Below, in pieces: positions 7,062 to 29,198 of a stretch of DNA of 64,000 bases (positions within the stretch are counted from its first letter, which is position 1; each line of letters opens with the position of its first letter). The position numbers and the translations under genes are program-made. The notes below the pieces were generated by a model. The model had not been told where the DNA came from and did not search any database. It saw nothing but the letters and a program-made list of their open reading frames with translations. Source of the DNA: an uncultured Bacteroidales bacterium (GTDB lineage: Bacteria > Bacteroidota > Bacteroidia > Bacteroidales > UBA932); NCBI GenBank assembly GCA_949297365.1, contig CASFSL010000005.1:1-64000 (forward strand), in the 5' to 3' direction.

Positions 7062-7069
7062 CATCTTCA

Positions 7070-7821: not shown

Positions 7822-7824
7822 ACA

Positions 7825-8298: not shown

Positions 8299-8309
8299 GT
8301 TTGTTTTTA

Positions 8310-9173: not shown

Positions 9174-9270
9174 TTGATGCCCTTTTGTAGCCATACTACA
9201 AAAAAGAAAGGTGCAAGTCCAACCTTGATTGTTATTCTGAAGGTATCGCCAAACACCCATATCCATACAA

Positions 9271-9546: not shown

Positions 9547-9634
9547 CTTGAAGAGGAGAAATTATCCCTCCAATCCTTGTGCAAAAATATATTCTAAGAG
9601 TCTTTTATTGCCATGTTTGATATGATTTAAAGCA

Positions 9635-9727: not shown

Positions 9728-9735
9728 AAAATATG

Positions 9736-11635: not shown

Positions 11636-11726
11636 AAAAAAACTATTAATGGTTTTACAATCAGAAAAATAAAAAGGACAATCAGAAACTAATCCAACTG
11701 CCCATGTAAGATATACCACTTGTGTA

Positions 11727-11996
11727 TCACAAAGTTGCCAATGTAGGTGCTCCACCATCCCCTTGTTGGTGAAGCATATAGAATATATCCCCTGTTTCAG
11801 GAGAACATACTTGTGAAATGACAGGCTTTGTAATGTCTCCTTTGAGGAATTTTTCACTTACAGCCCCTGTTTCACAGCCATATACAAAGAAGCATTTTCC
11901 TGTGTTGGGGTTTTGTTTCACATCAATTTTTTCCACACCCATTTTTGCTTTGAAGTCTGCAACAGACATTGTTTCGATGAATTTCAAGCTATCCAT
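11727..11996 (-). CDS. Small element-encoded hypothetical protein
   Basis: This 89-residue protein of unknown function begins MDSLKFIETMSVADFKAKMG and has alternating hydrophobic strands with two cysteines near the centre (CFFVYGC). It lies 91 bp upstream of the ATPase start on the same strand. Similar short proteins precede AAA_24 ATPases in Bacteroides elements, but I cannot name a family. Confidence 0.6.
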   Translation of the reverse strand: MDSLKFIETMSVADFKAKMGVEKIDVKQNPNTGKCFFVYGCETGAVSEKFLKGDITKPVISQVCSPETGDIFYMLHQQGDGGAPTLATL

Positions 11997-12313
11997 ATTT
12001 ATGATTTTAACTGTTGTGGGAGGGGACTATCCCCACCCTGAGTGATGGGGAGGGTGCTTGGATGGTGTAATTCATGCTCTTGAAAACAAGATAAGAGCGA
12101 AAAAATATTGGGAATTTAAACTTTCAGGTAATAGCCGGGCTATTCTTCAATGTGAAATAAAAGTTATAACAATGTATAGAATTAAGGCTCTGTTGTATAA
12201 ATGTCAAGAATTTGGCTGGGATGGGATAATAAAGTTTTTGTTTGATTTATATGATATACTATCTTTTCTGATTCAGTAAAAATAGCTATACATTATTGAT
12301 TTACAAATAAAAT

Positions 12314-12347
12314 AATTCCCTGTTCTCAAAAGTGAAAACAGGGAATT
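12314..12347 (-). terminator. Strong hairpin terminator behind the Rep-like gene
   Basis: A perfect 11 bp stem (AATTCCCTGTT/AACAGGGAATT, 12 nt loop) lies just past the stop of the Rep-like gene at 12370; on the minus strand the stem is followed by ATTTTATTT. The 370 bp between 11997 and 12369 otherwise hold no gene I can support. Confidence 0.65.
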
Positions 12348-12369
12348 ATACATTCAGTCAAGCATAGAA

Positions 12370-13065
12370 TTATGCCACCTCTTCAAGCATAAGGAGATAA
12401 TCATTTATTTCATCTTCTGTAGGATTAAACTCTTCCACTAAATCAATCCAAGTTTTGTGCCCAAGATGAGGATACATCAACACTTTTGCACTCGAATGCT
12501 CTGCATTAGTCAATGCCATAGGGACATCATAAGAAGACCATAGTACATTTTTTTCTATAAGGGCATTCCTATACTTTTTGAATGTGTTTTTAGATATACC
12601 CAATGCCTCCCATACTCTTTGGTCAGATAAATCATATCTGAAAGTATTGTTCAAGCAAAGGCAATACAATCCAATTATAACTCCTTTCTCTTCAGGAGAA
12701 ATGGTTTTGTCGAAAAAAAACTCCTTCCTGATAAATCTAAAATTATGAATTGGGTTGGGTAGATAGAAATGATTTCTCTTTACAAGAGGTTGTTCTTGAA
12801 TACATCTATGATACACAAATCTACTCTTTTTTAATCTTGGATAGAAATAATTACTGATATATTCCTCTGATACACCTGTCAAAGATGATAACTGAGGAAT
12901 AGTAATATCTGTGTGCAGAAAATTACCATCCCTTTGATAAGAAGATGATAGATACATACCTGCAAGCAGATACAAATCTCTCGGTTTGAACAAACCAATT
13001 GCACTAATGGGAAATGGCGTATAATCCTTTTTAGCCACAATCAAATCTGGATGTCTTTCTTCCAT
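12370..13065 (-). CDS. Tandem winged-helix protein, probable replication initiator
   Basis: This 231-residue protein shows two helix-turn-helix units, ITIPQLSSLTGVSEEYISNY (about residues 54-73) and a second around SDQRVWEALGISKNTFKKYRNAL (about residues 147-169). Two winged helices in this spacing are the hallmark of plasmid-type Rep initiators and of some element regulators. Directly upstream lies an inverted repeat with repeated TTAGTAT-like motifs (13099-13170), a plausible binding region. I favour a Rep or origin-binding role for the excised form of the element; a transcription regulator is the alternative. Confidence 0.6.
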   Translation of the reverse strand: MEERHPDLIVAKKDYTPFPISAIGLFKPRDLYLLAGMYLSSSYQRDGNFLHTDITIPQLSSLTGVSEEYISNYFYPRLKKSRFVYHRCIQEQPLVKRNHFYLPNPIHNFRFIRKEFFFDKTISPEEKGVIIGLYCLCLNNTFRYDLSDQRVWEALGISKNTFKKYRNALIEKNVLWSSYDVPMALTNAEHSSAKVLMYPHLGHKTWIDLVEEFNPTEDEINDYLLMLEEVA

Positions 13066-13098
13066 AATAAATTATTTATTTGTTAAACAATTAATTAT

Positions 13099-13170
13099 GG
13101 ATCAAAAATGCCCCTATACTAAATATCTACTTATCAATATTTAGTATATAATTAGTATCAGGGTAATTTT
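13099..13170. promoter_or_regulatory. Iteron-like inverted repeat region (origin or operator)
   Basis: A perfect 12 bp inverted repeat TATACTAAATAT/ATATTTAGTATA (13115-13126 and 13137-13148, loop 10) sits inside a looser outer repeat: GGATCAAAAATGCCCC at 13099 resembles the reverse of GGTAATTTTGACCC at the right end. The heptamer TTAGTAT or its complement occurs three times. The region lies between the Rep-like gene and integrase. It could be the element's replication origin, an excisionase/operator site, or both. Confidence 0.5.
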
Positions 13171-13277
13171 GACCCTAACATCGTAAATAAGAAAATTTGA
13201 TTGTTGGATTGAGGTTTGTTGATGTTGAGTGCAAAATTACAAAAGAATTTTTGAATGCAAAATTTCTGATGATAATT

Positions 13278-14477
13278 CTACAAATTTTCCATAGCCTTGT
13301 CAATTTGGCTATTTTCAAAGCCATCCAAATAAATTTGAGTGACTTTTTCAGAGCTATGCCCCAATGATTCGCAGATAATAGAAGTGGCTACTCCAGCCCT
13401 CTTCAAGACAGTTGCATAAGAGTGCCTTGCCACGTAGGTTGTAAGTTTGATAGGTGTATGCAACTCTTCTCCAATGGCTTTCAATGCCTTGTTTACTTTT
13501 GTGATAACCTTGTGAAGCCTGTTTAATCTTTGTTGCTCTGTTTTATGCTTGGTAGTGAGGATAGGAAAAAGATATGGACTGTTTTTCTTTTCATACTCCT
13601 TCAAGACCACAATAGCCCTTTCCTGCATAGGTAGATTTATTAGTTTGGATGTCTTTCTTCTGTTGTAAATCAATCTGTTATTCAATACATTCTTTTCTGT
13701 CAGATATGCCATATCAACAAAATTTATACCTCCCATAAAATAAGAGAATGTAAATAAATGAACCGCCAGTTTACAATAGAAGTCTTTTCCTGTGATATTG
13801 TAATTCACAACAGATAATATTTCCTCTTTGGTCAAAGCTCTTTTGGCTGCATCTTGATGAAGTTTTGACACCTTGAACTTCTTGAATGGGTAATTTTCTG
13901 GTTTTACCAACTCCATATTCATAGCCAAGTTGAATATCATTCTGATGTTCCTGAACCTTATTCCAATGGTGTTTTCAGATTTACCCTGCTTCCTTAGCCA
14001 TGTTTCATATCTTTTCAACCAATTACAATCTATGTCTGAAAAAGGAATATCCAAATGTCTGTTGAATTTAATTAATGAATTATAGGTCTGTTGGATAGAT
14101 AGTCTGTAACCTGTTCTTTTCTCTTCTTTAAGACAATGAATGTGCTGTTTAAATAGTTCTCCAACTGTAATAGTATTGGTTGGATGGGACACTTTTTCAA
14201 CAAGAGTAGTGGCAGAAAATTCCTTGTCTTCTGACTTTAGCTCTACAATCTTGCTCTTTACCTCACTTATTTTGTTGGCTATTAGCTTTTCAAGCATTTC
14301 TCTGTCAGGACAGTTGGACTTGGGCTGATTCTTCTCAAAGTCCCAATACTCTGCTTTGGTAGAAACACCAAGGTTGATATACCTTGTCTTTCTGTCTTTA
14401 CATATTCTAATTTTTAATGGTAATTCTCCTGATTTCAGGGGTTTGTACTTGTAGCAAATTACATCTACTGTAGTCAT
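13278..14477 (-). CDS. int: Tyrosine site-specific recombinase (integrase)
   Basis: This 399-residue Bacteroidetes-type integrase has an N-terminal arm-binding domain (about 1-90), a core-binding SAM-like domain (about 110-215) and a catalytic domain. The catalytic block ARHSYAT, the later LGHSS histidine and the nucleophile region IYLDGFE are all present near the C-terminus. The first catalytic arginine appears missing: the usual site reads MGGINFVDM, as in the IntDOT-type group where this residue is also replaced. I start at MTTVDVICYK (14477); the frame runs on to 14615, but that part overlaps the terminator and tRNA. Its position beside tRNA-Phe fits integration there. Confidence 0.92.
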   Translation of the reverse strand: MTTVDVICYKYKPLKSGELPLKIRICKDRKTRYINLGVSTKAEYWDFEKNQPKSNCPDREMLEKLIANKISEVKSKIVELKSEDKEFSATTLVEKVSHPTNTITVGELFKQHIHCLKEEKRTGYRLSIQQTYNSLIKFNRHLDIPFSDIDCNWLKRYETWLRKQGKSENTIGIRFRNIRMIFNLAMNMELVKPENYPFKKFKVSKLHQDAAKRALTKEEILSVVNYNITGKDFYCKLAVHLFTFSYFMGGINFVDMAYLTEKNVLNNRLIYNRRKTSKLINLPMQERAIVVLKEYEKKNSPYLFPILTTKHKTEQQRLNRLHKVITKVNKALKAIGEELHTPIKLTTYVARHSYATVLKRAGVATSIICESLGHSSEKVTQIYLDGFENSQIDKAMENL

Positions 14478-14542
14478 TTCGGTTAAAACATTGGAGAAAA
14501 CATTTCCCTGTTTTACCCTGCATTTTAACCATATTTGAGCAT

Positions 14543-14575
14543 AAAAAAAAGAGAGTTGCTTTTCAGTAACTCTCT
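14543..14575 (-). terminator. Terminator of tRNA-Phe carried by the element
   Basis: On the minus strand an 8 bp perfect stem (AGAGAGTT/AACTCTCT, 14550-14575) is followed by a run of eight T. It lies 8 bp past the duplicated end of the intact tRNA-Phe, so the element brings a replacement terminator for the gene it splits. Confidence 0.8.
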
Positions 14576-14582
14576 GATTTTT

Positions 14583-14628
14583 AAGTGGTGCCACCGGGAA
14601 TCGAACCAGGGACACAAGGATTTTCAGT
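14583..14628. repeat. Right attachment site, inside tRNA-Phe
   Basis: This is the second copy of the 46 bp direct repeat. It covers the 3' part of the intact tRNA-Phe from the anticodon loop to three bases past its end, and the integrase gene lies immediately on its element side. Confidence 0.9.
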
Positions 14629-14658
14629 CCTTTGCTCTACCAACTGAGCTATGGCACC
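14586..14658 (-). tRNA. tRNA-Phe (GAA)
   Basis: A 73 nt cloverleaf with a fully paired 7 bp acceptor stem (GGTGCCA/TGGCACC), D-arm GCTC/GAGC and anticodon stem AAGGA/TCCTT around loop CTGAAAA, giving anticodon GAA. CCA is not encoded. The T-arm has one unpaired position (T51 opposite C63); C63 lies in the part supplied with the att repeat, and the other copy has T there. A strong promoter lies just upstream at 14677-14684. Confidence 0.96.
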
Positions 14659-16868: not shown

Positions 16869-16941
16869 TGATCTGCTTGGGGCTCGAACCCAAGACCCCA
16901 ACATTAAAAGTGTTGTGCTCTACCAACTGAGCTAGCAGATC
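16869..16941 (-). tRNA. tRNA-Lys (TTT)
   Basis: A 73 nt cloverleaf: acceptor GATCTGC/GCAGATC, D-arm GCTC/GAGC, anticodon stem CAACA/TGTTG with loop CTTTTAA (anticodon TTT), and T-arm TTGGG/CCCAA. CCA is not encoded. A promoter -7 box lies at 16955-16962 on the same strand. Confidence 0.96.
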
Positions 16942-16954
16942 AGAAATTGGACGG

Positions 16955-16962
16955 CAAAAGTA
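16955..16962 (-). promoter_or_regulatory. Promoter of tRNA-Lys
   Basis: Minus-strand TACTTTTG with TTTTG 19 bp upstream, the same architecture as the tRNA-Phe promoter. Confidence 0.72.
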
Positions 16963-16998
16963 AGTAAAAAGATTTAATAGTCAAAATATTTTTACGGC

Positions 16999-17841
16999 AT
17001 GGATGAATTTAGTACTGAGGTGATGGCGTTCATGCGGGAATGCACGGGCAAGGAACCGCAGTGGAGATGCGTGTCCGGTGCAGGCGTATGTGTGGATGCG
17101 GAAGAAAGGCTGGCGGCTGTCATCGTTCCGCTGGACTTTTTCCGCAGCGGAGGTACGGCAGAGCGTTTGGTCTCAGTGGAGGCGGCAATATCCGAATTGA
17201 CGGCTGCGGACAGGATGTTCCTGTATGAGGACCGTTGGAGGAACAGCGGTACGGCTGTAAGGGCCATGATGAGGGTGAGGATGGGGCAGGGGCTCAGGGT
17301 GTTTGCCCGCAACTGCGATGTACGGCCCATAGCGCCTGAGACTGCTGCGGCCTTCCTTCAGCGCAATCATGTCTATGGCTCGGCGCGGGCCCGGTACCGG
17401 CTGGGTCTCTTTCGTATAAGGTCTACGGGAAATGCTGAGGCGGGGATGGATCAGACTCCGGGGATGGTGGCAGTGGCTACTTTCTCGGACGGCAGACGGA
17501 GGGAGGACGGTACGGTCTCGTATGAATGGGTGCGGTATGCCTCGGCTCAGGGTGTCAGGGTGGTCGGAGGGATGGGCCGGCTGCTTGATGCCTTTGTCGC
17601 AACAGTCGGAGACGGTACCCCGATGGATGTGATGACCTACGCTGATCTGGAATGGTACGACGGCCGCTCGTATCTGAGGCTGGGCTTCAAGCCGTGCGGA
17701 GACCGTGCTCCGGTGTGGTTCCTGTGCCGTCCGGGATGCCCCGGGAGGCAGATATGCCGGACAGAAGCGGCAGTGGATGAGGTAGACGGGGTCAAGATAT
17801 GCAATCTGGGCAGCCGGAAGTACGTCCTTTGTGGCAGGTAG
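16999..17841 (+). CDS. Hypothetical protein with phage-type GNAT-like domain
   Basis: This 280-residue protein has a C-terminal half (about residues 115-235) that follows the order seen in GNAT-like domains of phage Mom-type and endonuclease-associated proteins: FLQRNHVYGSARARYRLGLF, a VAVATFSDGRR strand, a YEWVRYAS strand, VVGGMGRLLDAF and a final TYADLEWYDGRSYLRLGFK. The N-terminal part is not recognised. No signal peptide. It is not obviously linked to its neighbours, and its GC-rich codon use matches the core genome. The assignment is by remembered pattern only. Confidence 0.6.
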   Translation: MDEFSTEVMAFMRECTGKEPQWRCVSGAGVCVDAEERLAAVIVPLDFFRSGGTAERLVSVEAAISELTAADRMFLYEDRWRNSGTAVRAMMRVRMGQGLRVFARNCDVRPIAPETAAAFLQRNHVYGSARARYRLGLFRIRSTGNAEAGMDQTPGMVAVATFSDGRRREDGTVSYEWVRYASAQGVRVVGGMGRLLDAFVATVGDGTPMDVMTYADLEWYDGRSYLRLGFKPCGDRAPVWFLCRPGCPGRQICRTEAAVDEVDGVKICNLGSRKYVLCGR

Positions 17842-17847: not shown

Positions 17848-19146
17848 TCAGCCCTTGCGGAATCTGTTGACAAGTGCGAACAGTACAGTGATCAGCAGCA
17901 GCACTGTGGTTACGATGCGGAAGCCTATCATGGTCGAGCCTATGGATATTTCAAAAGGATACATGGAGTCAAGGAGGCATCCGAGATCCCATACTGCGGA
18001 GAATATCGTAAGGCACGTCATGAAGAACAGCAGATTGTTCATTCTTTTGTCCGCTGCCTCCTCGCGTCTTTGGTTCTCCTGAAGGAGCATGTGCTGCATC
18101 TCGCTTTTGTCCCTGACGATGTCAAAGGCATCGTCCATGTGCGACATCATTCCGCACGGAAGGAAGTTGTATGATATTTTCGGGAAGCAGTATTCTCTCT
18201 CAAACTGTATGAATTCATCCTTGAGATTGTGCAGATTGCTGCCTTTTTTCCTGAAAAGGGTGTTGAGCCGGAACAGGTAGAATTTTCGGAAAAGGCAGTA
18301 GAGGTATATCTTTCCGAAGTAGTCTGTCTCCCAGTTTGTGATCAGATATTCCTTAGTGGATCCCGAGAGGATGGTGAAGGTGTCGAACAAGGCCAGGGCT
18401 GTCCAGTTGTTGAAAATCGAGATTTTGGACGATTGGATGGTAGAGCCGAAATATTCTTTCGAACTGCTCATGAAGTCGTCGCCGTTGTAAGAGCCTTCCC
18501 TGGTCAGGGTGCCTGCCTCGAACAGCCTGCGGTCCAGCTCGTCTGCCCCGGATGGGTACTCGTCAGTGGCGAGAATGTGGAACAGTTTGAATTTATTGCC
18601 GTTCTCCATAAGAAACGGATACCCCGTTGTGACCGTACCGTCGTAAGATACCCGGGATGTAGTGGAGTAAGGCCCTCTCAGGCACTCGTAGACCTCACAT
18701 ATCGGGTGGATGACGGCATCCGTGAATCCGCCCAGAGTGTCAGGATTGTAGTAGCAGATGTTCCGCAGAGTACCGAGGGCGGCGGTAAGATCGCTGAACT
18801 GAACATTGCGGTGGACGGTCTTTATCGAGAATACAACTATGTTGAAAGGGAATATGTACAGATGCAGGTCGCCTGCCTCGAAAGAGTATTCATGACCGTT
18901 TACCTGGATTGTGAGTCCTGTCATACGGCTTCTGCGGAAAACCTGTATCCCGTTACTGTCCCCGCATCCTGAGATGAAATCGATGAAGTCACTGTAATAA
19001 AAATCCTTCATCTCGTCTGTCTCTTCCCGGGTGCATACAGCTTCGTTCCATCCTGCCGGAAGACAGTCCTGGGACAATCTTTTTCCATACCTCCTGTCCG
19101 ATGTGAAGAATCCGCACAGGAACGCTCTGCTTTCTGAAACAATCAT
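17848..19146 (-). CDS. Membrane protein with two C-terminal helices, CorA-like layout
   Basis: This 432-residue protein has a long soluble N-terminal part, a charged helical segment (SEMQHMLLQENQRREEAADK, about residues 340-359), then two membrane helices (about 361-383 and 401-425) and a short positive tail. This order recalls CorA-type channels, but the GMN loop motif is absent and similarity is only architectural. It is divergent from the STAND NTPase gene, 62 bp apart, and ends 6 bp from the gene before it on the other strand. Met 46 (19011) is an alternative start. It might be a membrane effector or partner of the NTPase; this is inference. Confidence 0.65.
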   Translation of the reverse strand: MIVSESRAFLCGFFTSDRRYGKRLSQDCLPAGWNEAVCTREETDEMKDFYYSDFIDFISGCGDSNGIQVFRRSRMTGLTIQVNGHEYSFEAGDLHLYIFPFNIVVFSIKTVHRNVQFSDLTAALGTLRNICYYNPDTLGGFTDAVIHPICEVYECLRGPYSTTSRVSYDGTVTTGYPFLMENGNKFKLFHILATDEYPSGADELDRRLFEAGTLTREGSYNGDDFMSSSKEYFGSTIQSSKISIFNNWTALALFDTFTILSGSTKEYLITNWETDYFGKIYLYCLFRKFYLFRLNTLFRKKGSNLHNLKDEFIQFEREYCFPKISYNFLPCGMMSHMDDAFDIVRDKSEMQHMLLQENQRREEAADKRMNNLLFFMTCLTIFSAVWDLGCLLDSMYPFEISIGSTMIGFRIVTTVLLLITVLFALVNRFRKG

Positions 19147-19193
19147 GGTCGTTTGTATCGTGCTACAAGGGCATAAAAGTAGAGTTTTTTAAT

Positions 19194-19201
19194 TATCTTT
19201 G
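19194..19201 (+). promoter_or_regulatory. -7 box directly before the STAND NTPase gene
   Basis: TATCTTTG ends only 7 bp before the ATG at 19209, so transcription would begin at or next to the start codon (leaderless or near-leaderless message). No -33 box at proper spacing is seen. On the other strand, TACTTTTA (plus 19172-19179) could serve the divergent membrane gene. Confidence 0.45.
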
Positions 19202-19208
19202 CAAGGCT

Positions 19209-22200
19209 ATGAAAGATTTTTTACTGCATCAATATACCGGGGAGGACCGTCAGCGGATAGAGAGTGTGTTTGACAGGGCCTGTGCCGGATATCCGTATAC
19301 ACTTGCTCATGCTGTGACCGGTATAGTCCGCGAGATGTCCCTGGAGCATTATTCCAAGGCGATGAACTATACCCTGGATTTCTTTGAGACGGCATCCCAG
19401 TACATATCCGTCATCCTGTTCGGGATGCTCCGCAAGCGGGCTCTGGAGAGCGGGACAGTGGACGAGTCGCTGCTCAAAGTGATCAGGAAGATAGATGACA
19501 AGCGGCCCCTCTCGTTCGGAGACTGGTGCAATGATATCCTGGCACCGCTGGCTTCTGCTGCATCCAAACTGCTGGCGGACAATCCGCTGTGCGCATCGCT
19601 GTGGAATGTGCTGCGTCCTAAGCACAATGTGTTTCTCGGAGGAAAGTCGGCTCCGGGTATCGTACAGATACGTAATGAGTACAAGGGGCACAGCACCACT
19701 TTGTCGGAGGAGATATATAAAGGAGTGGTCTATACCATGGAACCACGGCTGATAGAGTTGCTGGAGGCCCTTTCCCCATTGGCTTCCGCGGAATATTTCG
19801 CGGCTCCATGGGGCGGTGGGGAGGTCATCAGTCTTAAGGGCGATGTTCCTGCGGTTTCCGGACATTCTCCCGGGATTCCTGCCGGGCATTACTGTATCTA
19901 TACCGGTGGAGAACTCTTTTTGGACCTGTTTCCTTTAATATATTGCGATGAGAACGGCTTTATATACGTATTCCAGTCGCTTATCAACGAGGAAACCTCC
20001 CACATATCCACCAACGAGAGTGCTGTTAGAAAGGTTACGGATGTCTTTAATGATGAGTTTGATGCCTATATGCAGGCTGTGTCGCCGTCGTTTGACATAT
20101 CTGATACGCTGAACTGGGATGAGTGGGTGGCCCTTCTGCACGCCGAGTCGGCCTGTTTTCTCCGCAGAGTGTACAATGAGAAGAAATACAACAAGGAACT
20201 TTTTGTGGAGAGAATGCAGCTGACGGCGGAGCTGGAGAGATTTCAAGGAGGGGAAGCCGTGCTGTTCCCTTTGTTGGGCGAGGCCGGACAGGGTAAGACT
20301 AATCAGTTGTGCCACTGGACAGAGACTCTGATGCAGAGGGGAGAGGCCGTGTTGATCATGAGCGGTTCGGATTTCTCTATGGTCAGTCTGGAGGACAAGA
20401 TGCGCAGGGTGGCCGGGGCTTCTCCGCGCAAACCCGTATCCAAGATAATGGATGCGCTGCACAAGTGTGCCTTGGAGAAAGGCAGAACCGTTACGGTGTT
20501 CATAGACGCTGTCAACGAATGTCTGCGCTACAGCGGCTCTGATTCAGAGGAAAACGGGCCGTTGGATCTGTACAACAGCCTGTGCTCGGTATTCTGTGCC
20601 GGTGGATATACTCAGTTCAAGGTGCTGTTCACATGCCGCAGCTATACGTGGAAGAATGTGATCTATCCCGTGGCATCCAGGCAGCCGGCCGGACTTTTCC
20701 ATGACCGTGGCGAAGACAGCGATACTGCCGTCAGGGGATTCACTCAGGAAGAGGCGGAGAGGGCTTATGCCATTTATGGCGAGCTGTATCAGATGCGTAC
20801 TCCGTACAGAGAACTGTCCAAAGGCAGCATTATCCGTCTGAGGGATCCGCTGGTACTGAAGATAGCCTGTACGGACTATCTGGGCCGGAGGCTGCCGGAG
20901 AAGATGCACGATTACAGTTCCCTGAGCCTGTTTCACAGGATGTTCGAGGACATAGCCTCGTCCTATGCCGGGAACCGTCAGAAGGAGATACTGCTCGTCA
21001 TGGCCGAGTATTTTCTTAAGAGCTATGAGAGTGGAGTGCCGGTTGACTCTATATCTTTCAAGGAGCTGCGTCACGCTGAAGACGGCCCTCTGGCGCGTCT
21101 GTCGGAGCTTATATTCAAGGAAGACGGGACATCCGTCGCCTATGGAGAACTTCTCAACAAGCCCGAGCGTCCTGTCCTTAGGTATGTCGAGAATGAACAT
21201 GATGACCATGGCGGCAGGATACAGTTTATCTACGAGAGGTTTCTGGAATATATGCTGGCTCTGGTGTATTACAGGGCCGAAACGGAACAATCAGGCGGGA
21301 AGGCATTGCCGGTAGGCAGACTGGTGGAGACTGTGTCCAGGGCGCATACCAATGAGGTCTTTATGGGAGCCATGCGCAATGTGCTGATAATGGACTATGT
21401 CAAGACCGGGAGCAGTGATACGCTGCTTGATCTCGCCGCGCATTATGGAGAGGATTACAATATAACGGCCATAGTCAATGATGCCGTCAGCGTGCTTGTC
21501 GGAGAAAATTATGAGGAAGAACTCTTCAGCCTGGAGGAGGATTTGCTCTCCGGCTCACCCGACTGTACAAAAACGCAGGTGATGGAGTTCAATGCGCTGA
21601 GTAAGGCTATACAGGGTAATAAGGCTACGGAAGAAACGATAGCGCGTTACCGGGAACTGTCGGCTGTCCTGGCACCGACTCTGAAACTGCGTCAACTGGC
21701 CGCTGTCACCCTGCTTAACGGTATATTCCTGACGGACTACTACAACGAGGCAGTGTATAGCCGTGATCCCTTCTCCCTTCTGTGGCGGCTTCTGGATGAC
21801 CCGGTGTCCGAAGTGCGCAATGACGCCTGCATGTACTCCTACTATATATCAAGAAAAGACAAGACATTGAACAATACGTCGCTGCGTGAGAACATCTCGT
21901 CTGTGATAGTGGACAGGATGTATGGTGAGATCCGTTCCAGGTCATTGATCGGCGGCGTGACCGGAAAGGACGTGCGTTCCAGAACAGTTACATTTCTGGA
22001 GGTCGGCACCAGGCTCAATGTCCTGCTTATCATAGATGCCCTGCTGTCAGGTGATGCCGGAAGACGTGCGGAGGTGGCGTCTATGCTTGACCGGACAGTC
22101 GGCATATTCCGTTATATGACGTGGAATTTCCGGCTGGTGAAAGTCCTGATGCCGTTTTTCTCGGTGATACTGAGGCGGCAGCTCACGTTTCAGGCGGCTT

Positions 22201-23342
22201 ATGTCAACAACGTCATAGAGTACCAGTCTTTCTGGGATGACAGCGTGGTGCCGCTCCGCAGTGTCTCGTCGGAGTGGAGCCGCGAGGACCTGAAGGATGT
22301 GCTCGGTACTCTGTTCAATTATTCGCGGTATTACAGCAAGGGATTGCCGGTCCCGGACTTCGGCGTCCATCTGCCGAAGATAATAGCCGCATACCGTACA
22401 GGAGACAGTTTCACATATTTTGCCCTGGAGAGGCTGCTTGTCATCAACGGGCTCTGTGACATCGGGATAATGTATCCTGTCACGGAAGCGATGTCTACTC
22501 CGGAGTTCGCACAGACCCAGTGGTACGACTATTCCCGTATGTCCATGATCTATGTCCTCTATCAGCTGGGCTTGAAGTCGGAGGTATTCCCGGACGCTCT
22601 GTGGGAGGTGACCGGCCGGTGGTGCGTGGAGTGGACCAGACGGTGCCGGGGATATTTCAAGGCACGCAACAGTCATAAGGCCAATCCCATGCAACTGTAT
22701 AAGCGGAACGTGATGACCTGGTATGCGATGATTTTCAGTGCGCGTCACCCCGGCTGTTCCGCAGAGGACATACGTGCAGGTATACCTTTGTTCTATGAAC
22801 TTCTGGATGAGGCGATAGACAACAGGGACAAAGAGCTGCTGGTGCATCTTATAGACAACATATCTGAACTGGTGTCCGACTCAGGCTATATTGATACCGC
22901 CCTCGAACTGCTCCGGTACATACTCGTGCGTATAGATTCCGTGAAGATAATGGAGGAGATGGACAGCCGTGCCGACCTCAGGTATCCGTCCACGTCGGAG
23001 GATATAGTGTCGCTCGTGGGCAAGCTGCTCGGAACGGCGAAAAATTATTTCCCTGCGGAGGTGGACAGTTTCCTGAAGAAGGATATAGTGGGCCTGAAGT
23101 TCCCCGGAATAAGCAGATACCGTGAGGACATACTCAACTACAATCCGGGTGGGGAGACCCTGTCCGACCTGTTCACGCACAAGTTCGGCAACTTCCTGAT
23201 ATGGTCCTTGGTCAATGAGGAGGCCGTGGATGAATTTGCCTATGAGGCGATGTGCGCCGCCACGGATGCTCCGGACTGTATCAATTGGTTCAATCAGGTG
23301 GTACGGATATTGTTCAGGCATCTGTTTAAAGTGAGAATATGA
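19209..23342 (+). CDS. STAND/NACHT-type NTPase with N-terminal HEPN-like motif
   Basis: This large 1377-residue protein has three parts. Residues 1-340 are helical and contain R155-N-E-Y-K-G-H161, the R-x5-H signature (with Asn after Arg) of HEPN ribonuclease domains. Residues 350-560 form a P-loop NTPase: Walker A GEAGQGKT at 357-364, Walker B VFIDAVNE with D433, and a sensor-like LFTCRSYTW. The remaining 800 residues are helical repeats, a likely sensor. Signal-sensing NTPases built this way act in phage defence and cell death (family knowledge). It could detect a viral trigger and activate RNA cleavage. Neighbours are a divergent membrane protein and a GDPD gene overlapping its stop. Confidence 0.8.
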   Translation: MKDFLLHQYTGEDRQRIESVFDRACAGYPYTLAHAVTGIVREMSLEHYSKAMNYTLDFFETASQYISVILFGMLRKRALESGTVDESLLKVIRKIDDKRPLSFGDWCNDILAPLASAASKLLADNPLCASLWNVLRPKHNVFLGGKSAPGIVQIRNEYKGHSTTLSEEIYKGVVYTMEPRLIELLEALSPLASAEYFAAPWGGGEVISLKGDVPAVSGHSPGIPAGHYCIYTGGELFLDLFPLIYCDENGFIYVFQSLINEETSHISTNESAVRKVTDVFNDEFDAYMQAVSPSFDISDTLNWDEWVALLHAESACFLRRVYNEKKYNKELFVERMQLTAELERFQGGEAVLFPLLGEAGQGKTNQLCHWTETLMQRGEAVLIMSGSDFSMVSLEDKMRRVAGASPRKPVSKIMDALHKCALEKGRTVTVFIDAVNECLRYSGSDSEENGPLDLYNSLCSVFCAGGYTQFKVLFTCRSYTWKNVIYPVASRQPAGLFHDRGEDSDTAVRGFTQEEAERAYAIYGELYQMRTPYRELSKGSIIRLRDPLVLKIACTDYLGRRLPEKMHDYSSLSLFHRMFEDIASSYAGNRQKEILLVMAEYFLKSYESGVPVDSISFKELRHAEDGPLARLSELIFKEDGTSVAYGELLNKPERPVLRYVENEHDDHGGRIQFIYERFLEYMLALVYYRAETEQSGGKALPVGRLVETVSRAHTNEVFMGAMRNVLIMDYVKTGSSDTLLDLAAHYGEDYNITAIVNDAVSVLVGENYEEELFSLEEDLLSGSPDCTKTQVMEFNALSKAIQGNKATEETIARYRELSAVLAPTLKLRQLAAVTLLNGIFLTDYYNEAVYSRDPFSLLWRLLDDPVSEVRNDACMYSYYISRKDKTLNNTSLRENISSVIVDRMYGEIRSRSLIGGVTGKDVRSRTVTFLEVGTRLNVLLIIDALLSGDAGRRAEVASMLDRTVGIFRYMTWNFRLVKVLMPFFSVILRRQLTFQAAYVNNVIEYQSFWDDSVVPLRSVSSEWSREDLKDVLGTLFNYSRYYSKGLPVPDFGVHLPKIIAAYRTGDSFTYFALERLLVINGLCDIGIMYPVTEAMSTPEFAQTQWYDYSRMSMIYVLYQLGLKSEVFPDALWEVTGRWCVEWTRRCRGYFKARNSHKANPMQLYKRNVMTWYAMIFSARHPGCSAEDIRAGIPLFYELLDEAIDNRDKELLVHLIDNISELVSDSGYIDTALELLRYILVRIDSVKIMEEMDSRADLRYPSTSEDIVSLVGKLLGTAKNYFPAEVDSFLKKDIVGLKFPGISRYREDILNYNPGGETLSDLFTHKFGNFLIWSLVNEEAVDEFAYEAMCAATDAPDCINWFNQVVRILFRHLFKVRI

Positions 23343-24148
23343 GAAATGTAATGATATCGGTGTGTCTCGCACTAGTGCTTACGGGTGCGGCCTGCTCCGC
23401 AGAGGGTCTGTCGGAAAATGAGGTTAGGAATATGAAGATAATAGCTCATAGAGGTGGCTCCTCCTTAGGAAACGAGAATACTTTGTCATGTATAGCGGCC
23501 GGTATGGCCGCCGGAGCGGATATGGTGGAAATAGACGTGCATCAGACGGCTGACAGTGCGCTGGTGGTGTGTCATGATATGACAGTTGACCGTACAACTG
23601 ACGGCAAGGGCCGTATAGAGGACCTGACATTGGCGCAGATACGCTCGCTGAGGATTGTCGGTGAGGACGGTTCCCTGACGGACGAGCATATCCCTACGCT
23701 GGATGAGGTGCTGGACCTCATAGACGGCAGATGCGGCCTTCTGCTGGAGGTAAAGCGCCGCAAGCATCAGTATGAGGGGATAGAGGAACGTGTGGTGGAG
23801 GCTCTGGAAAGGCACAATGCCGTAGGATATACAGTCGTGCAGTCTTTCAATGACCGTGTGATAGAGACAGTTCACCGGCTTAACCCTGAGATACGGGTGG
23901 AAAAGCTTCTGTTCTGCCGTGTACTTGGCCTGCCTCTGATATTTGACGGCACGTTCACGTCTTTCAGTTGGGATAAATACGGATATGTCGCTTCATTCAA
24001 TTTCTATCACGGTTTCATAAACCGCAGGCTGCTCGATGAGATTCATGAGCGCGGCAAGGAAGTGAAAGTGTGGACGGTCAATGATGAGAGGTCGTTCCCG
24101 AAGATACCTGTGGACGGAGTCATAACCGACTGTCCTGATAAATTCTGA
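23339..24148 (+). CDS. Glycerophosphodiester phosphodiesterase lipoprotein
   Basis: This 269-residue enzyme hydrolyses glycerophosphodiesters to glycerol 3-phosphate and an alcohol. It begins with a lipoprotein signal (lipobox TGAAC, Cys19), then the GDPD motifs: H37-R38-G-G, E46-N-T, a VEIDVHQT segment and the VVCHD histidine, and ends with VKVWTVNDE and a terminal GVITDCPDKF typical of the family. The ATG overlaps the NTPase stop (ATGA), implying translational coupling. Its 3' end overlaps the convergent clpC-like gene by 29 bp. Confidence 0.92.
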   Translation: MRNVMISVCLALVLTGAACSAEGLSENEVRNMKIIAHRGGSSLGNENTLSCIAAGMAAGADMVEIDVHQTADSALVVCHDMTVDRTTDGKGRIEDLTLAQIRSLRIVGEDGSLTDEHIPTLDEVLDLIDGRCGLLLEVKRRKHQYEGIEERVVEALERHNAVGYTVVQSFNDRVIETVHRLNPEIRVEKLLFCRVLGLPLIFDGTFTSFSWDKYGYVASFNFYHGFINRRLLDEIHERGKEVKVWTVNDERSFPKIPVDGVITDCPDKF

Positions 24149-26609
24149 CAGCCGGTTTCGCGGCAGGGACAGAGACAGACAGTGAGTCTCCGCTGCTGTC
24201 AACGTCCACTTTTATCCTGTCGCCTTTCTTGATACCGGACAGTATGAGCTCGGCCAAGGGGTCTTCAAGGTATTTCCTCAGTGCTCTTTTGAGCGGCCGG
24301 GCTCCGTAGGCCGGGTCGTAGCCTTTGTCGCACAGGAACTCCTTGGCCATGCGTGTCAGGCTTATGCTGTATCCGGCTTCTGATACCTTCCTGTACAGTC
24401 CGGCCAGCTCCAGTTTCAGGATTGCGGCCATGTCGCTGCGGGTCAGACTGTTGAAGTATACGGTCTCGTCCAGCCTGTTGAGGAACTCCGGTGTGAAAGT
24501 CCTTCCCAGAGCCTTGTCAATCAGAGTCTTGTGCAGCCGTTCGGGGTCGTCGCCGCTGCCGCTGTATCCGATGCCCCGGCCGAAATCCTTTATATCGCGG
24601 CTGCCTATGTTGGAAGTCAGTATGATGACCGTGTTGCGGAAGTCCACCAGGTGTCCGTTGCTGTCGGTGAGCCGTCCCTCGTCCAGTATCTGGAGCAGGA
24701 TGTTGAAGATGTCGGGGTGGGCTTTCTCGATCTCGTCCAGCAGCACTACCGAGTAGGGTTTCTGCCGCACTCTCTCGCTCAGCTGTCCTCCGTCGTCGTA
24801 CCCGACGTATCCCGGAGGAGCCCCGAGAAGCCGGCTGACGGATATCTTTTCCATATATTCGCTCATGTCCAGGCGGATAATGGCGTCCCGGCTGTCGAAA
24901 AGCCGTTCGGCAAGCGTCTTGGCAAGATGGGTCTTGCCGACCCCGGTCGGTCCCAGGAAGAGGAATGAGCCGATGGGTCTGTCGGGGTCTTTCAGCCCCG
25001 CGCTGTTGCGCTGGATGGCTTTGACGACCAGCTCTACTGCCTTTTCCTGGCCTATGACGCTCCTGAGCAGGGCCGGCTGGAGTCCGTGGAGTCTGGATGC
25101 TCCTGATAAGGACATCTTATTAATAGGTATCCCGGTCATATTGGAGACAGTCCTCAGGATGTCGGATTCTTTGACGGATACAGGACTCTTGGAATGATTC
25201 CTGACAGCGTTGTCCGTGATGCGGTCCATCTCGCTCTCGTGTTCCTGCTCCATCCTCAGAAGCTTCACTCCCATGTCGAAATCACTGCTCCTGAGACAGT
25301 CTCTTTTCATGTCACGTATGTCCTTAAGGCTGTCACCTATAGCTTTCAGTTTCGCCGGTGGCATGCTGTGCCCCAGATAGGCTGCCGCTCCTGCCTCGTC
25401 CATTACGTCGATGGCCTTGTCCGGCTGGTTTCTGTCCGTGATGTATCTTCCGGACAGAGTGATGCAGGCCCTGACAGCTTCGGGAGTGTAGATTACGTTG
25501 TGATATTGCTCGTAATGTGTTTTCAGACTATTGAGTATCTGCAGCGTCATGCTCTCCGACGGTTGCTCCACGGATATTTTCTGAAATCTTCTGGCCAGCG
25601 CTCCGTCTTTCTCGATGATCTTACGGTACTCGTCCGAGGTTGTTGTTCCGATGCACTGGAACTCTCCTCTGGAAAGGGCCGGCTTCATGATCGCCGCCGC
25701 GTCCATAGTGCCCCCTCCGCCTCCTGCGCCCACGATATTGTGGATCTCGTCGATGAACAGGATGATGTCCGGGTTGCTGCGTGCAGAGTCCAGAATCCTC
25801 TTCAGTCTTTCCTCAAAGTCCCCGCGGAATTTAGTGCCGGCGACTATAGCTCCCATATCCAGGGAGATTATCCTTTTACGGAGCATACATACCGGGACAT
25901 TTCTGTCTGCGATGCGCATGGAGATGCCCTCGGCTATCGCGGTCTTGCCGACACCCGGCTCTCCGACTATCAGTGGGTTGTTTTTCTTTCTTCTGCAGAG
26001 TACGCTTATGGCCCTGTCTATCTCTCTGTCCCTTCCGATGACAGGATCCAGCAGTCCCTCCTCCGCAGCGGCTGTCAGGTCGTATCCGAACCGGTCCAGG
26101 ATATCTCCTTCCGGCTCCGGTATTCCGTCTTCCAGATCGTCGGCCTCGATGTCACCGTATCCGCTCTCCCCGGCTTCCGGCGCATCTTTGGCGTATCGGC
26201 TCATCCGGCTGAAATCAAGTCCCAGATCGTGCGCTATGCGGGAGAATAAGGATGTGCCTTCCTTGAGTATGACGCTTAAAAACACCATGGTGTCGGGAAT
26301 GTGCCCGGCCTCTGGCATCCTGATTATGGATGCGGCGGTGTCGGCGACATGCCGGAGCTCGGGGCTGACGCTTACATCTTCGGACACATTGTAGGGAATG
26401 GAGTACCCTTTGTCCAGACGGTCCATAAGCATGGCCTTGATGCGTTGAAGGGACAGTCCGTTCTCTTCCAGGAAGCGGCATGCCTCATTGTCCTCCTGCC
26501 GTATCATCCCGAGTATGAAGTGCTCTACGGTGATGGTTGTCCAGCCTGTCTTTACGGCTTCTTCGCCGGCATACCTGAAGATGGCGTTTACTTTCTCGAC
26601 CTCGTTCAT
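24120..26609 (-). CDS. clpC: ClpC-like AAA+ unfoldase subunit of Clp protease
   Basis: This 829-residue Hsp100 protein unfolds substrates for ClpP or disaggregates proteins. It has an N-domain with two repeats (about 1-140), a first AAA module (Walker A GEPGVGKT 216-223, then FIDEIHNIVG), a short central segment with a UVR-like stretch (about 430-465) typical of ClpC rather than ClpB, and a second AAA module (Walker A GPTGVGKT 553-560, then LLDEIEKAH). A GRGIGYSG loop after the second module may be the ClpP contact. ClpA is the alternative name. It is transcribed away from gyrA. Confidence 0.9.
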   Translation of the reverse strand: MNEVEKVNAIFRYAGEEAVKTGWTTITVEHFILGMIRQEDNEACRFLEENGLSLQRIKAMLMDRLDKGYSIPYNVSEDVSVSPELRHVADTAASIIRMPEAGHIPDTMVFLSVILKEGTSLFSRIAHDLGLDFSRMSRYAKDAPEAGESGYGDIEADDLEDGIPEPEGDILDRFGYDLTAAAEEGLLDPVIGRDREIDRAISVLCRRKKNNPLIVGEPGVGKTAIAEGISMRIADRNVPVCMLRKRIISLDMGAIVAGTKFRGDFEERLKRILDSARSNPDIILFIDEIHNIVGAGGGGGTMDAAAIMKPALSRGEFQCIGTTTSDEYRKIIEKDGALARRFQKISVEQPSESMTLQILNSLKTHYEQYHNVIYTPEAVRACITLSGRYITDRNQPDKAIDVMDEAGAAAYLGHSMPPAKLKAIGDSLKDIRDMKRDCLRSSDFDMGVKLLRMEQEHESEMDRITDNAVRNHSKSPVSVKESDILRTVSNMTGIPINKMSLSGASRLHGLQPALLRSVIGQEKAVELVVKAIQRNSAGLKDPDRPIGSFLFLGPTGVGKTHLAKTLAERLFDSRDAIIRLDMSEYMEKISVSRLLGAPPGYVGYDDGGQLSERVRQKPYSVVLLDEIEKAHPDIFNILLQILDEGRLTDSNGHLVDFRNTVIILTSNIGSRDIKDFGRGIGYSGSGDDPERLHKTLIDKALGRTFTPEFLNRLDETVYFNSLTRSDMAAILKLELAGLYRKVSEAGYSISLTRMAKEFLCDKGYDPAYGARPLKRALRKYLEDPLAELILSGIKKGDRIKVDVDSSGDSLSVSVPAAKPAVRIYQDSRL

Positions 26610-26696
26610 GTGCTTTTAAATTTCAAGGCCCTAAAATAATCAATATTTGAAAAATATTTCGTATTTTAGCGTTTTGTTTTGGAAATACATGATAAG

Positions 26697-29198
26697 ATGG
26701 AAAATGAAGAAATAAATCAGGGCAGGATAGTGCAGGTGGATATCGAGACGGAGATGAAGACAGCGTATATCGACTATTCGATGTCCGTTATCGTGGCGCG
26801 TGCCCTGCCTGATGTGCGGGACGGTCTCAAGCCGGTCCATAGGAGAGTATTGTATGGAATGAACGAACTTGGCCTGACATCCGGAGGCCAGCATAAGAAG
26901 TCGGCCCGTATAGTCGGTGAGGTACTGGGTAAATACCATCCTCATGGAGACTCGAGTGTCTATGACGCTATGGTCCGGATGGCTCAGGACTGGAGCATGA
27001 GATATATGCTGGTGGACGGCCAGGGTAACTTCGGCTCGATAGACGGGGACTCGGCTGCGGCCATGCGTTATACGGAGGCACGTTTCCGCAGGCTGGCGGA
27101 GGAGTGCCTGGAGGATCTGGACAAGGATACCGTGGATTTCACACCCAACTTTGACGAGACTCTGAAAGAGCCGGTGGTGCTGCCTTCCAAGGCTCCGCTG
27201 CTGCTGCTCAACGGCTCGTCCGGTATCGCTGTCGGAATGGCGACCAATATGGCTCCGCACAATCTGGGCGAGGTAGCCGATGCCATCTGCGCGTATATAG
27301 ACAACAATGACATCACCGTTGATGAGCTGATGCATTATATAAAGGGTCCTGACTTCCCGACCGGAGGCATTATTCAGGGTATATCCGGCATAAGGGATGC
27401 CTTTGAGACCGGACGCGGGCGCATAGTGGTGCGCTCCAAGACGGAGATAGAGGTGCAGCCGTCAGGCCGTGAGGTGATAGTGGTGACCGAGATTCCCTAT
27501 ATGGTGAATAAGAGGGAGATGATAGAGAATATCGCCAGACTGGTGGAGGATAAGAAGATAGACGGTATCGCCTATATCAACGACGAGAGTGACCATAAGG
27601 GTATGCGCGTGGTCATCAAGCTTAAGATGGGCGCGGTGGCCAATGTGGTGCTGAATACTCTCTTCAAGCTCACCTCGCTTCAGTCCAGTTTCTCGGTAAA
27701 CAATATCGCTCTTGTGGACGGACGTCCCAGACTGCTCAATCTCAAGCAGCTGATAAAGTATTTCGTGCGTCACCGTCACAACGTGGTGGTGCGCAGGGCC
27801 CAGTTCAATCTGGCGGAGGCCCGCAAGCGCGAGCATATACTGGCCGGTCTGCTTAAGGCGATTGACATCATAGACGAGGTGATAGCCCTGATACGTGCGT
27901 CTAGAAGCCGTCAGGATGCCCGTGACGGTCTGTGTGAGAAGTTCGGTTTCTCCGAGATACAGGCCGGAGCCATTGTCGAGATGAGACTCGGTCAGCTTAC
28001 CGGCATGGACCGGGAAAAGCTCCGGGCTGATTATGACGCAGTGGTGGCCCTTATTCAGGAACTGACGGCATTCCTGGCGGATGAGTCGCTCCAGTATGCG
28101 CTGATTAAGAAGGAGACTCAGGAACTCAAGGAGAAATACGGCGATCCGAGACGTACAGAGATAGTGCCTTCGGCCGATGAGTTCAATCCCGAGGACTTCT
28201 ACGCCGACGAGGATGTGGTCATCACCATTTCCCATTCGGGCTACATAAAGAGGACTCCTCTGGCCGAGTACCGTCTGCAGAACCGCGGAGGTGTGGGCTC
28301 CAAGGGCAGCACTACAAAGGACGAGGACTTCATAGAGCATATCTATGTGGCCAATACCCACAGCACCATGCTGTTCTTTACCGACAAGGGCAAGTGCTAC
28401 TGGCTGAAGGTGTACGAGATACCCGAGGGAACCAAGACCTCGAAAGGCCGCGCTATACAGAATGTGATCAATATTGAGCCGGATGACCATGTCTGCGCTT
28501 ACCTCAATGTCGGCAACCTGAATGATGAGGAGTATATCAACAGCCATTATATCGTGCTCGCTACCAAGCGCGGTACGATAAAGAAGACCCTGCTGGAGGC
28601 CTATTCCCGCCCCCGTCAGAAAGGAGTCAACGCTATTACCATAAAGGAAGGCGACGGACTGCTAGAGGCGGTACTGACCGACGGAGACAATGATATCCTG
28701 CTGGCGGCCAGAAAGGGCAAGTGCGTGCGCTTCCATGAGTCTCAGGCCCGTTCCATCGGCCGTACGGCGGCCGGTGTGCGCGGCATAAGCATCGAGGATG
28801 ACGATGAGGTGATAGGTATGGTCTGCGCCAGGAATGTGAAGGAAGGGGAGACTGCTCTCGGTGACATACTCGTGGTCAGCGAGAACGGATTCGGCAAACG
28901 CTCTCCTCTGGAGGACTACAGGATTACCAGCCGTGGTGCCAAGGGAGTCAAGACCATCAACATCACAGACAAGACAGGTGAGCTTATAGCCGTCAAGATG
29001 GTGTCTGATGACAATGATCTTATGATTATCAATAAGTCAGGTATTACTATCCGCGTTCCCGCATCCGACATAAGGGTGGCCGGCAGGGCTACTCAGGGGG
29101 TTAAGCTTATTAACCTCCGTGAGGGCGATACCATTGCCGCGGTCTGTGTCGTGAACAAGAGCGAGGAGAAGGTACAGGAGAATGGAGAAGAATTATAA
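26697..29198 (+). CDS. gyrA: DNA gyrase subunit A
   Basis: This 833-residue protein is the DNA-cleaving subunit of gyrase, forming A2B2 with GyrB to introduce negative supercoils. The catalytic tyrosine is Y125 in [10 protein letters not shown]. The quinolone-determining region reads [10 protein letters not shown], with Ser86 and Asp90 at the positions equal to E. coli 83 and 87, the sensitive state. The C-terminal half contains the six-bladed DNA-wrapping propeller. An acidic tail is short. I start at ATG 26697; the longer frame begins with TTG at 26679. It is divergent from clpC, with an AT-rich 87 bp gap. Confidence 0.96.

What the first reader, a model, noticed from the sequence alone, without database searches (positions are those of the whole stretch)
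17848..23342. Divergent HEPN-STAND NTPase and two-helix membrane protein: candidate undescribed defence system
Seen: a 1377-residue protein with R155-x5-H161, Walker A 357-364 and Walker B D433, and 800 residues of helical repeats, facing a membrane protein with a charged helix plus two C-terminal membrane helices, 62 bp apart. Known: STAND NTPases (Avs and related) sense phage proteins, and HEPN domains cleave RNA. The pairing with a CorA-like membrane partner is not one I recognise.
Basis: partly seen in the sequence, partly recalled or inferred. Interest (0 to 1): 0.75.

Follow-up and report, generated by a model that had tools for sequence, protein, structure and literature searches.

The report
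NLR-like sensor with CorA-type membrane effector
In some Bacteroidales bacteria, an NLR-like sensor gene was found next to a gene for a membrane channel related to a known CRISPR defence effector and a gene for a lipid-type phosphodiesterase, which together look like an undescribed, still untested immune module.

Summary
In detail: a 1377-aa STAND protein with an R-N...H motif, Walker A 357-364 and D433 faces a two-helix membrane protein 62 bp away. The pairing is real. All 15 loci found with a full-length STAND relative (12 species-level) have a CorA-family neighbour. Six of them were hit by STAND-first searches, three of these new.

A same-genus genome has the empty site: CorA, STAND and GDPD are missing there together, and it has no GDPD hit. 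The unit is 17848-24148.

The membrane protein is a distant homologue of the type III CRISPR CorA effector, without the GMN filter. In one genome a different CorA-family protein takes its place. CorA-like relatives also sit beside other sensors, so the pore looks sensor-swappable.

HEPN is likely from the motif (spacing 4-5), but no fold match was shown and profile tests were weak. Best reading: an immune module in which STAND gates a CorA-type pore. Defence is inferred. New variant of a known kind.

The parts
17848..19146 (-). CorA-like two-helix membrane protein, 432 aa (predicted effector)
   Evidence: AF2 mean pLDDT 81.8; Foldseek ranks 1-16 all CorA/CmaX, best E 7.2e-4; PADLOC CorA-like E 4.9e-6
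18763..18765 (-). R128 of the CorA-like protein, invariant in 23 of 23, aligned to the first arginine of the GRR motif of type III-type CorA
17854..18027 (-). two C-terminal membrane helices (about residues 374-395 and 405-431), no GMN motif
19147..19208 (.). 62-bp divergent intergenic region; TATCTTTG box at 19194-19201 towards STAND; no such box towards CorA in the window
   Evidence: TAnnTTTG on 13 of 16 strands in 8 intergenic regions, 1.2 expected from mononucleotide shuffles; the Bacteroidetes -7 box is recalled
19209..23342 (+). HEPN-like / STAND NTPase / helical protein, 1377 aa (predicted sensor)
19242..19787 (+). all-helical N-terminal domain, residues 12-193, HEPN-like by motif
   Evidence: AF2 model; motif conservation
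19671..19691 (+). R155-N-x4-H161 motif
20277..20300 (+). Walker A GEAGQGKT, residues 357-364
20505..20507 (+). Walker B D433 (FIDAVNEC)
21126..23339 (+). C-terminal region, residues about 640-1377 (predicted sensing part)
   Evidence: not modelled; no PDB sequence relative of the family at E 0.001; role inferred
23339..24148 (+). GDPD, 269 aa, N-terminal signal/lipoprotein-like segment by eye; third gene of the unit
   Evidence: Pfam PF03009 E 3.9e-38; follows STAND in 15 of 15 loci

Best explanation
A three-gene, horizontally moving immune module of the NLR/Avs kind. The cytosolic STAND protein senses an infection cue through its C-terminal region, loads ATP and oligomerises. Its N-terminal HEPN-like domain then cuts RNA and/or passes the signal on, and the CorA-type membrane protein opens and disrupts the inner membrane, stopping phage growth at the cost of the cell. 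The GDPD, anchored with its catalytic domain outside the cytoplasm, hydrolyses glycerophosphodiesters or lysophospholipids, strengthening the membrane damage or setting the lipid state the channel needs. Shown here: gene content and linkage, absence of all three together at one empty site and different flanks in other lineages, conserved NTPase and GDPD motifs, homology of the membrane protein to the CRISPR CorA effector. Inferred: anti-phage role, sensing, oligomerisation, RNA cleavage, pore opening, GDPD location and substrate, and the coupling step.
For: Linkage: 11 of 25 CorA-first loci carry the STAND next door. STAND-first searches hit 2 of 295 and 4 of 221 genomes; all 6 loci, three of them already known, have a CorA-family protein and a GDPD. 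G916 carries a different CorA-family protein (PADLOC E 5.5e-12). GDPD: the only PF03009 hit in 5 of 8 module genomes, none in empty-site G727; 8 of 9 module GDPDs form one clade, support 0.995, and STAND, CorA and GDPD distances correlate at r 0.91-0.97. Mobility: same-genus G727 lacks these three genes between the GNAT-like gene and clpC; of the 12 loci compared, only L017/L018 and window/L014-L016 share flanks. Effector: of 23 CorA-like members 19 hit PADLOC PDLC01174 (best 4e-13) and 18 PDLC01043; forced global profile match to two type III-type CorA proteins over 413 columns, probability 91.6, E 1e-7. The published CorA effector is needed for type III-B immunity (PMC10600005, abstract and passages). 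Sensor: Avs-like NTPase.
Against: No functional data. HEPN fold not demonstrated: an unrelated family (Peptidase_M3_N, 0.0028, two members) scored better than HEPN (0.013, one member), and the profile alignment had probability 1.0. The local profile comparison with type III CorA is only probability 48.6. The closest GDPDs outside modules are stand-alone genes, and the L027 module GDPD groups with one of these, so GDPD may have been recruited twice or have an ordinary role. No viral-contig (CorA query only) or plasmid carriers; phage records were not searched. The CRISPR CorA DDR pair and GMN are not conserved. Tree congruence is not corrected for species relatedness, and the STAND profile used was itself built from CorA-first loci.
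Confidence: 0.6

Rival explanations
1. CorA-type protein as a toxin held silent by its partners: the STAND and/or GDPD normally restrain a leaky channel, and loss of restraint during infection kills the cell (a toxin-antitoxin-like arrangement rather than a sensor-activated effector).
For: In the CRISPR system CorA alone is somewhat toxic and its phosphodiesterase NrN lowers that toxicity (PMC10600005 passages). Divergent promoters would allow separate dosing.
Against: Intact Walker A and B in 10 of 11 STANDs aligned (G817 is interrupted; L018 was not in that alignment but has both) fits triggered activation. The G817 locus with an interrupted STAND keeps its CorA-like and GDPD genes, which does not suit a lethal unrestrained toxin, though the stop may be a sequencing error.
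Confidence: 0.15
2. The STAND/HEPN-like protein makes or triggers a nucleotide second messenger that opens CorA through the R128 pocket, as Cas10 does with SAM-AMP.
For: R128 is invariant in 23 of 23 and aligns to the arginine motif that I equate with the pair proposed for SAM-AMP binding; the CorA-like family elsewhere sits with very different sensors, as expected for a messenger-gated pore.
Against: No relative of the Cmr2/Cas10-, NrN- or DEDD-like proteins of three CorA-CRISPR loci among 238 ORFs of the 15 module loci; GDPD is predicted, by eye, to be exported; the DDR pair is not conserved. The genome-wide Cmr2 query (0 of 8) had no positive control.
Confidence: 0.1
3. Envelope or lipid stress-response module with no role in immunity: STAND senses membrane damage, CorA adjusts ions and GDPD recycles lipid head groups.
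For: GDPD and CorA folds are usually housekeeping (recalled); stand-alone GDPD relatives exist; CorA-like relatives lie beside a SpoIIE-type phosphatase and a histidine kinase.
Against: Patchy presence (2 of 295 order genomes; 4 of 221), empty site in the same genus, HEPN-like motif, Avs-like NTPase and CRISPR-CorA homology fit conflict systems better.
Confidence: 0.12
4. Two unrelated neighbouring genes with no shared function.
For: Divergent transcription from separate promoters.
Against: 15 of 15 loci keep a CorA-family gene, STAND and GDPD in several different chromosomal contexts; the empty site lacks all three together.
Confidence: 0.02

Closest known systems
Avs/AVAST STAND NTPases (Avs2, Avs4, Avs5)
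   Same: Large protein with N-terminal domain, STAND-type NTPase and long C-terminal region; NTPase matches Avs2 models and Avs4/Avs5 structures appear in the Foldseek list
   Different: Match is limited to the NTPase; N-terminal domain has a HEPN-like motif; CorA-type membrane partner and GDPD in 15 of 15 loci; NCBIfam Avs2 score 20.1 against a cut-off of 1000
CorA effector of type III-B CRISPR (SAM-AMP activated; Chi et al. 2023, PMC10600005)
   Same: Distant homologue (413 columns in a forced global profile alignment, E 1e-7), CorA fold, two C-terminal membrane helices, conserved arginine; a neighbouring phosphodiesterase gene is a feature there too
   Different: STAND in place of Cas10; no Cmr-, NrN- or DEDD-like ORF in the 15 module loci; no GMN (0 of 23); DDR pair missing; the phosphodiesterase is a GDPD with a signal-like N-terminus
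CorA Mg2+ channels
   Same: Fold (Foldseek ranks 1-16; TM-scores low)
   Different: GMN filter absent; no Pfam family for the window protein, best matches are PADLOC CorA-like models
SAM-HEPN-like-NACHT-TPR proteins beside CorA (L026, L029)
   Same: SAM domain in 3 of 11 N-terminal regions (by eye L026, L029 and the STAND of L027), RN..H motif, NACHT/NPHP3-type NTPase, divergent CorA-like gene
   Different: TPR C-terminus, accompanied by a ~195-aa protein, no GDPD-cluster gene in those loci

Membership tests
STAND NTPase / NLR-like sensors | P-loop NTPase with Walker A and B of the STAND/NACHT type | tested here: met
   GEAGQGKT in the window and invariant G, G, K, T, D433 in 10 of 10; Avs2 model E 2.4e-7; Avs4 and NOD2 in the Foldseek list
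STAND NTPase / NLR-like sensors | C-terminal superstructure-forming repeats | tested here: inconclusive
   residues beyond 640 not modelled; no sequence relative in PDB at E 0.001
Avs2 | score above the curated equivalog cut-off | tested here: not met
   20.1 bits against 1000
HEPN | R-x4-6-H motif with polar residue after R (definition recalled) | tested here: met
   R-N and H in 11 of 11 STANDs aligned at the motif (five residues between in ten, four in L142); R, N, H invariant in 11 of 11 N-termini, two siblings included
HEPN | HEPN helical-bundle fold | tested here: inconclusive
   all-helical residues 12-193, motif between helices 151-158 and 167-187; no HEPN among 50 listed Foldseek rows; one of 11 members hits PF18735 at E 0.013, while unrelated Peptidase_M3_N scores 0.0028; 21-column profile alignment to PF18735 proteins E 0.053, probability 1.0
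HEPN | RNase activity needing R and H | not testable with these tools
   -
CorA superfamily | CorA fold with two C-terminal membrane helices | tested here: met
   TM-scores normalised by the query are only 0.15-0.23 for ranks 1-16
CorA Mg2+ channels | GMN motif | tested here: not met
   0 of 23
Type III CRISPR CorA effector | homology over the N-terminal domain and membrane part | tested here: met
   forced global, probability 91.6, E 1e-7, 413 columns; local, probability 48.6, E 1.8e-4, N-terminal 109 columns; 19 of 23 members hit PDLC01174
Type III CRISPR CorA effector | encoded with Cas10 and a SAM-AMP degrading enzyme | tested here: not met
   profiles or queries made from Cmr2-, NrN- and DEDD-like proteins of L071-L073 (named by eye) find none among 238 ORFs of the 15 module loci, and do find their own sources; genome-wide Cmr2 query 0 of 8 without a positive control
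GDPD | GDPD domain with HRG, EN and H motifs (motifs recalled) | tested here: met
   PF03009 E 3.9e-38; HRG and EN seen in 9 of 9 aligned module GDPDs
Anti-phage defence system | protects against phage | not testable with these tools
   -

The most novel reading that the evidence does not exclude
The CorA effector of type III CRISPR is one branch of a wider, sensor-swappable immune pore family in Bacteroidota. In the branch seen here an NLR-like HEPN-STAND receptor takes the place of Cas10 and a lipid-directed, exported GDPD takes the place of the messenger-degrading enzyme, giving an immune system that attacks the membrane from both sides.
Probability: 0.4. Interest if true: 0.78.

Novelty: new variant of a known kind. 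Interest (0 to 1): 0.62.

Why it matters
It gives a testable three-gene system that links two known immune ideas (NLR-like STAND sensing and CorA-type membrane effectors) outside CRISPR. It bears on the open question of how CRISPR CorA works and why it needs a partner enzyme, because here the partner is a different enzyme, probably on the other side of the membrane. It also shows that a HEPN-STAND-like protein has a constant membrane partner, which annotation of the single gene does not show.

Tried and rejected
Viral contigs for CorA (93 pattern matches, none a relative; STAND not tried there) and plasmids for both proteins (no match); the phage collection was not searched. G210/L007 was a weak CorA hit in a 216-aa ORF that I take, by eye, for a DJ-1-like protein; dropped. 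STAND profile over 395 phylum genomes: apart from the window, 5 hits cover only the NTPase stretch, in 851-982-aa proteins; the 15-kb stretches taken around them hold no blastp match to a CorA-like or GDPD protein of the survey; not counted as relatives. The GNAT-like neighbour 16999-17841 was considered a fourth gene and rejected: present in 41 of 59 family genomes and next to clpC in the empty-site genome. PADLOC search with the N-terminal alignment A5 gave only single-member weak hits, Csx1/Csm6 (CARF+HEPN) at 0.0097 among them. The ~195-aa family c1 has no PDB match and no Pfam match worth naming. Literature: six searches for the combination showed nothing that by title and abstract start describes it; one search returned no paper, looked up one title, one search gave the CorA/SAM-AMP papers. 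Passages only were read in PMC8195603, PMC12255297, PMC7159879, PMC11014256, PMC10600005, PMC9122126 and PMC11229360; no paper was read in full, and other listed ones (such as PMC12839542 on BREX-related systems and PMC8649781 on Tn7 cargo) were not opened. Most subscription papers are not held, so 'not described' is limited to these searches of this library.
Full report
What is there. The large protein has R155, N156, H161, GEAGQGKT at 357-364 and D433; these are invariant (in Walker A: G357, A359, G360, G362, K363, T364) in an alignment of the window protein with nine others at 31-99% identity. Pfam gives only NPHP3_N at E 0.01, below its cut-off. PADLOC gives Avs2 over the NTPase (E 2.4e-7, residues 354-437) and NCBIfam's Avs2 scores 20.1 against a cut-off of 1000, so it is a STAND NTPase but not Avs2.

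A third gene. The gene after the STAND, 23339-24148, is a GDPD (PF03009 E 3.9e-38) whose start overlaps the STAND stop. In the 12 loci of the first survey that carry the STAND (window plus 11 of 25 CorA-first loci) a gene of the same GDPD cluster follows in 12 of 12. In the three further loci found from the STAND side it follows in 3 of 3. By eye the GDPDs start with a hydrophobic anchor or lipoprotein-like segment, which by the usual rules puts the catalytic domain outside the cytoplasm; this is inference.

The unit has edges. A genome of the same genus, G727, has the GNAT-like gene directly followed by clpC and gyrA; the DNA aligns on both sides (window 16901-17700 and 24250-27000) and the CorA, STAND and GDPD genes are absent from between. 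That genome has no PF03009 hit; in five of the eight module genomes searched the module GDPD is the only one, and three have one more. The GNAT-like gene is common in the family (41 of 59 genomes) and not part of the unit. L014-L016 carry the locus at the same site and are 97.6-98.0% identical to the window over 12-15 kb, so I count them and the window as one species. Among the 12 loci of the first survey only these four, and L017 with L018, share flanking genes.

Is the pairing real? The genome-contig scan used the CorA protein as bait, so its 11 of 25 STAND neighbours are the count from that side. From the STAND side: 2 of 295 order genomes, 1 full-length of 395 phylum genomes (the window itself) and 4 of 221 genomes in the family of G740 (the profile used was built from CorA-first loci). 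Apart from repeats these are six loci, three of them (window, L027's genome, L017's genome) already known and three new, and all six have a CorA-family protein and a GDPD beside the STAND. In G916 (L142) the neighbour is not the window's CorA type but a different 477-aa protein of the same superfamily (PADLOC CorA E 5.5e-12), 50 bp upstream on the same strand. Replacement of one CorA-family protein by another is the best single argument that the STAND needs such a protein. Totals: 15 loci, 12 species-level units, 15 of 15 with a CorA-family gene and 15 of 15 with GDPD. In G817 (L141) the STAND frame carries one stop; it is counted as a locus and described only.

What the membrane protein is. 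The AlphaFold2 model (mean pLDDT 81.8) hits CorA or CmaX chains in Foldseek ranks 1-16 (best E 7.2e-4, probability 0.96; TM-scores normalised by the query are low, 0.15-0.23). Of 23 members of the family alignment, window included, 19 hit PADLOC PDLC01174 (best 4e-13) and 18 PDLC01043 at E 0.001 or better; that these models stand for the CRISPR-associated CorA is recalled. I compared the family profile with two CorA proteins from loci that by eye carry type III-B cmr genes. The local comparison gave probability 48.6, E 1.8e-4 over 109 columns; a forced global one gave probability 91.6, E 1e-7 over 413 columns. R128, invariant in 23 of 23, falls on the first arginine of their GRR motif. Chi et al. 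(PMC10600005, abstract and passages) mutated a conserved pair R152-R153 and lost immunity; I equate the two by motif, not by an alignment with their protein. Their second pair (D219-D220), which I equate with the DDR motif, has no conserved counterpart here, and GMN is absent in 23 of 23. No Cmr2-, NrN-, DEDD- or other Cmr-like ORF is found among 238 ORFs of the 15 module loci. So it is a relative of the CRISPR CorA effector and not, as far as tested, a member of the Cas10-linked SAM-AMP group.

What the N-terminal domain of the STAND is. The model of residues 1-640 (mean pLDDT 85.9) shows an all-helical block, residues 12-193, with the motif between helices 151-158 and 167-187, then a small beta region and the NTPase. 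R-N and H are kept in 11 of 11 proteins aligned at the motif, with five residues between R and H in ten and four in L142; two SAM-domain siblings beside other CorA genes have RNEIHH. Such variable spacing is what the HEPN signature allows (recalled). Direct evidence for the fold is missing and the profile tests are weak. In Pfam one of 11 members matches PF18735 at E 0.013 (the table does not name it; L029 matched at 0.048) while the unrelated Peptidase_M3_N scores 0.0028. There is no meaningful PDB hit by sequence. A 21-column profile alignment centred on the motif has E 0.053 and probability 1.0, and the Foldseek list is filled by AAA ATPases, with Avs4, NOD2 and Avs5 at ranks 2, 32 and 41.

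The wider family. Of the 25 CorA loci, 14 lack the STAND. Their CorA-like gene stands beside a SpoIIE-type phosphatase with TPRs (Pfam in L030; similar proteins in L034 and, fused to CorA, in L033), SAM-RN..H-NACHT-TPR proteins in the same divergent layout (L026, L029), an AAA protein (L024), a PAS histidine kinase (L032) or others. A ~195-aa protein family of unknown fold lies after CorA in 13 of 25 loci (one gene further on in L035), L027 included, and was not found in the ten divergent STAND loci. The CorA-like protein therefore looks like a general output with exchangeable inputs.

Evolution. In a tree of 27 GDPDs, eight of nine module GDPDs form one clade with support 0.995; that of L027 groups with a stand-alone GDPD. 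STAND, CorA and GDPD distances correlate at r 0.91-0.97 in nine loci, without correction for the species tree. TAnnTTTG boxes occur on 13 of 16 strands in eight intergenic regions, against 1.2 expected from mononucleotide shuffles; in the window only the STAND side has one. No relatives were found in viral contigs (CorA query) or plasmids (both).

How it most likely works, and how sure. I hold the immune-module reading at 0.6. The steps shown are gene content, linkage, joint presence and absence, and homologies; sensing, oligomerisation, RNA cleavage, pore opening and the role of GDPD are inferred. It resembles Avs/NLR systems on the input side and CRISPR CorA on the output side, and it does not meet the membership tests for Avs2 or for the Cas10-linked CorA system. 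The window also has, about 3 kb to the left, an integrase next to tRNA-Phe with a type I restriction methylase and specificity gene and an Abi_alpha gene, which is in keeping with a defence neighbourhood but proves nothing.

Noticed in passing
window 1-14658: Mostly lower-GC stretch ending at tRNA-Phe (14585-14658) with a tyrosine integrase (13281-14477), HsdM (5116-6681), HsdS-type protein (2794-3894) and Abi_alpha (1336-2115), all minus strand.
   Followed up: partly
window 16999-17841 +: 280-aa protein, GNAT-like by eye, without any family hit, present in 41 of 59 family genomes; it differs more between the window and L014-L016 (94.4-94.7% nt) than its neighbouring genes do.
   Followed up: partly
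L024-L027, L029-L031, L033-L038, after the CorA-like gene: Unnamed ~195-aa family with invariant H...H, GSKF and F.G..A residues in the 10 members aligned, found after CorA in 13 of 25 loci; no PDB or convincing Pfam match.
   Followed up: partly
L033 4246-7377 +: One ORF joining a phosphatase-type region, similar to the SpoIIE protein of L030, to the CorA-like protein; the two are separate neighbouring genes in L030 and L034.
   Followed up: partly
L026 6162-9689 -, L029 2534-6208 -: SAM domain + RN..H region + NACHT/NPHP3-type NTPase + TPR proteins divergent from a CorA-like gene: a sister arrangement.
   Followed up: partly
L142 3377-4810 +: A different CorA-family protein (477 aa) takes the place of the window-type CorA beside STAND and GDPD.
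   Followed up: partly
L141 1831-5886 +: STAND reading frame interrupted by one stop codon while CorA-like and GDPD frames beside it are open; real decay or sequencing error cannot be told.
   Followed up: no
L074 1-5475: Partial CorA-type protein with GMN followed by a 144-aa protein and a 1311-aa protein with a P-loop-like GKT by eye: possibly another CorA plus NTPase pairing outside this family.
   Followed up: no
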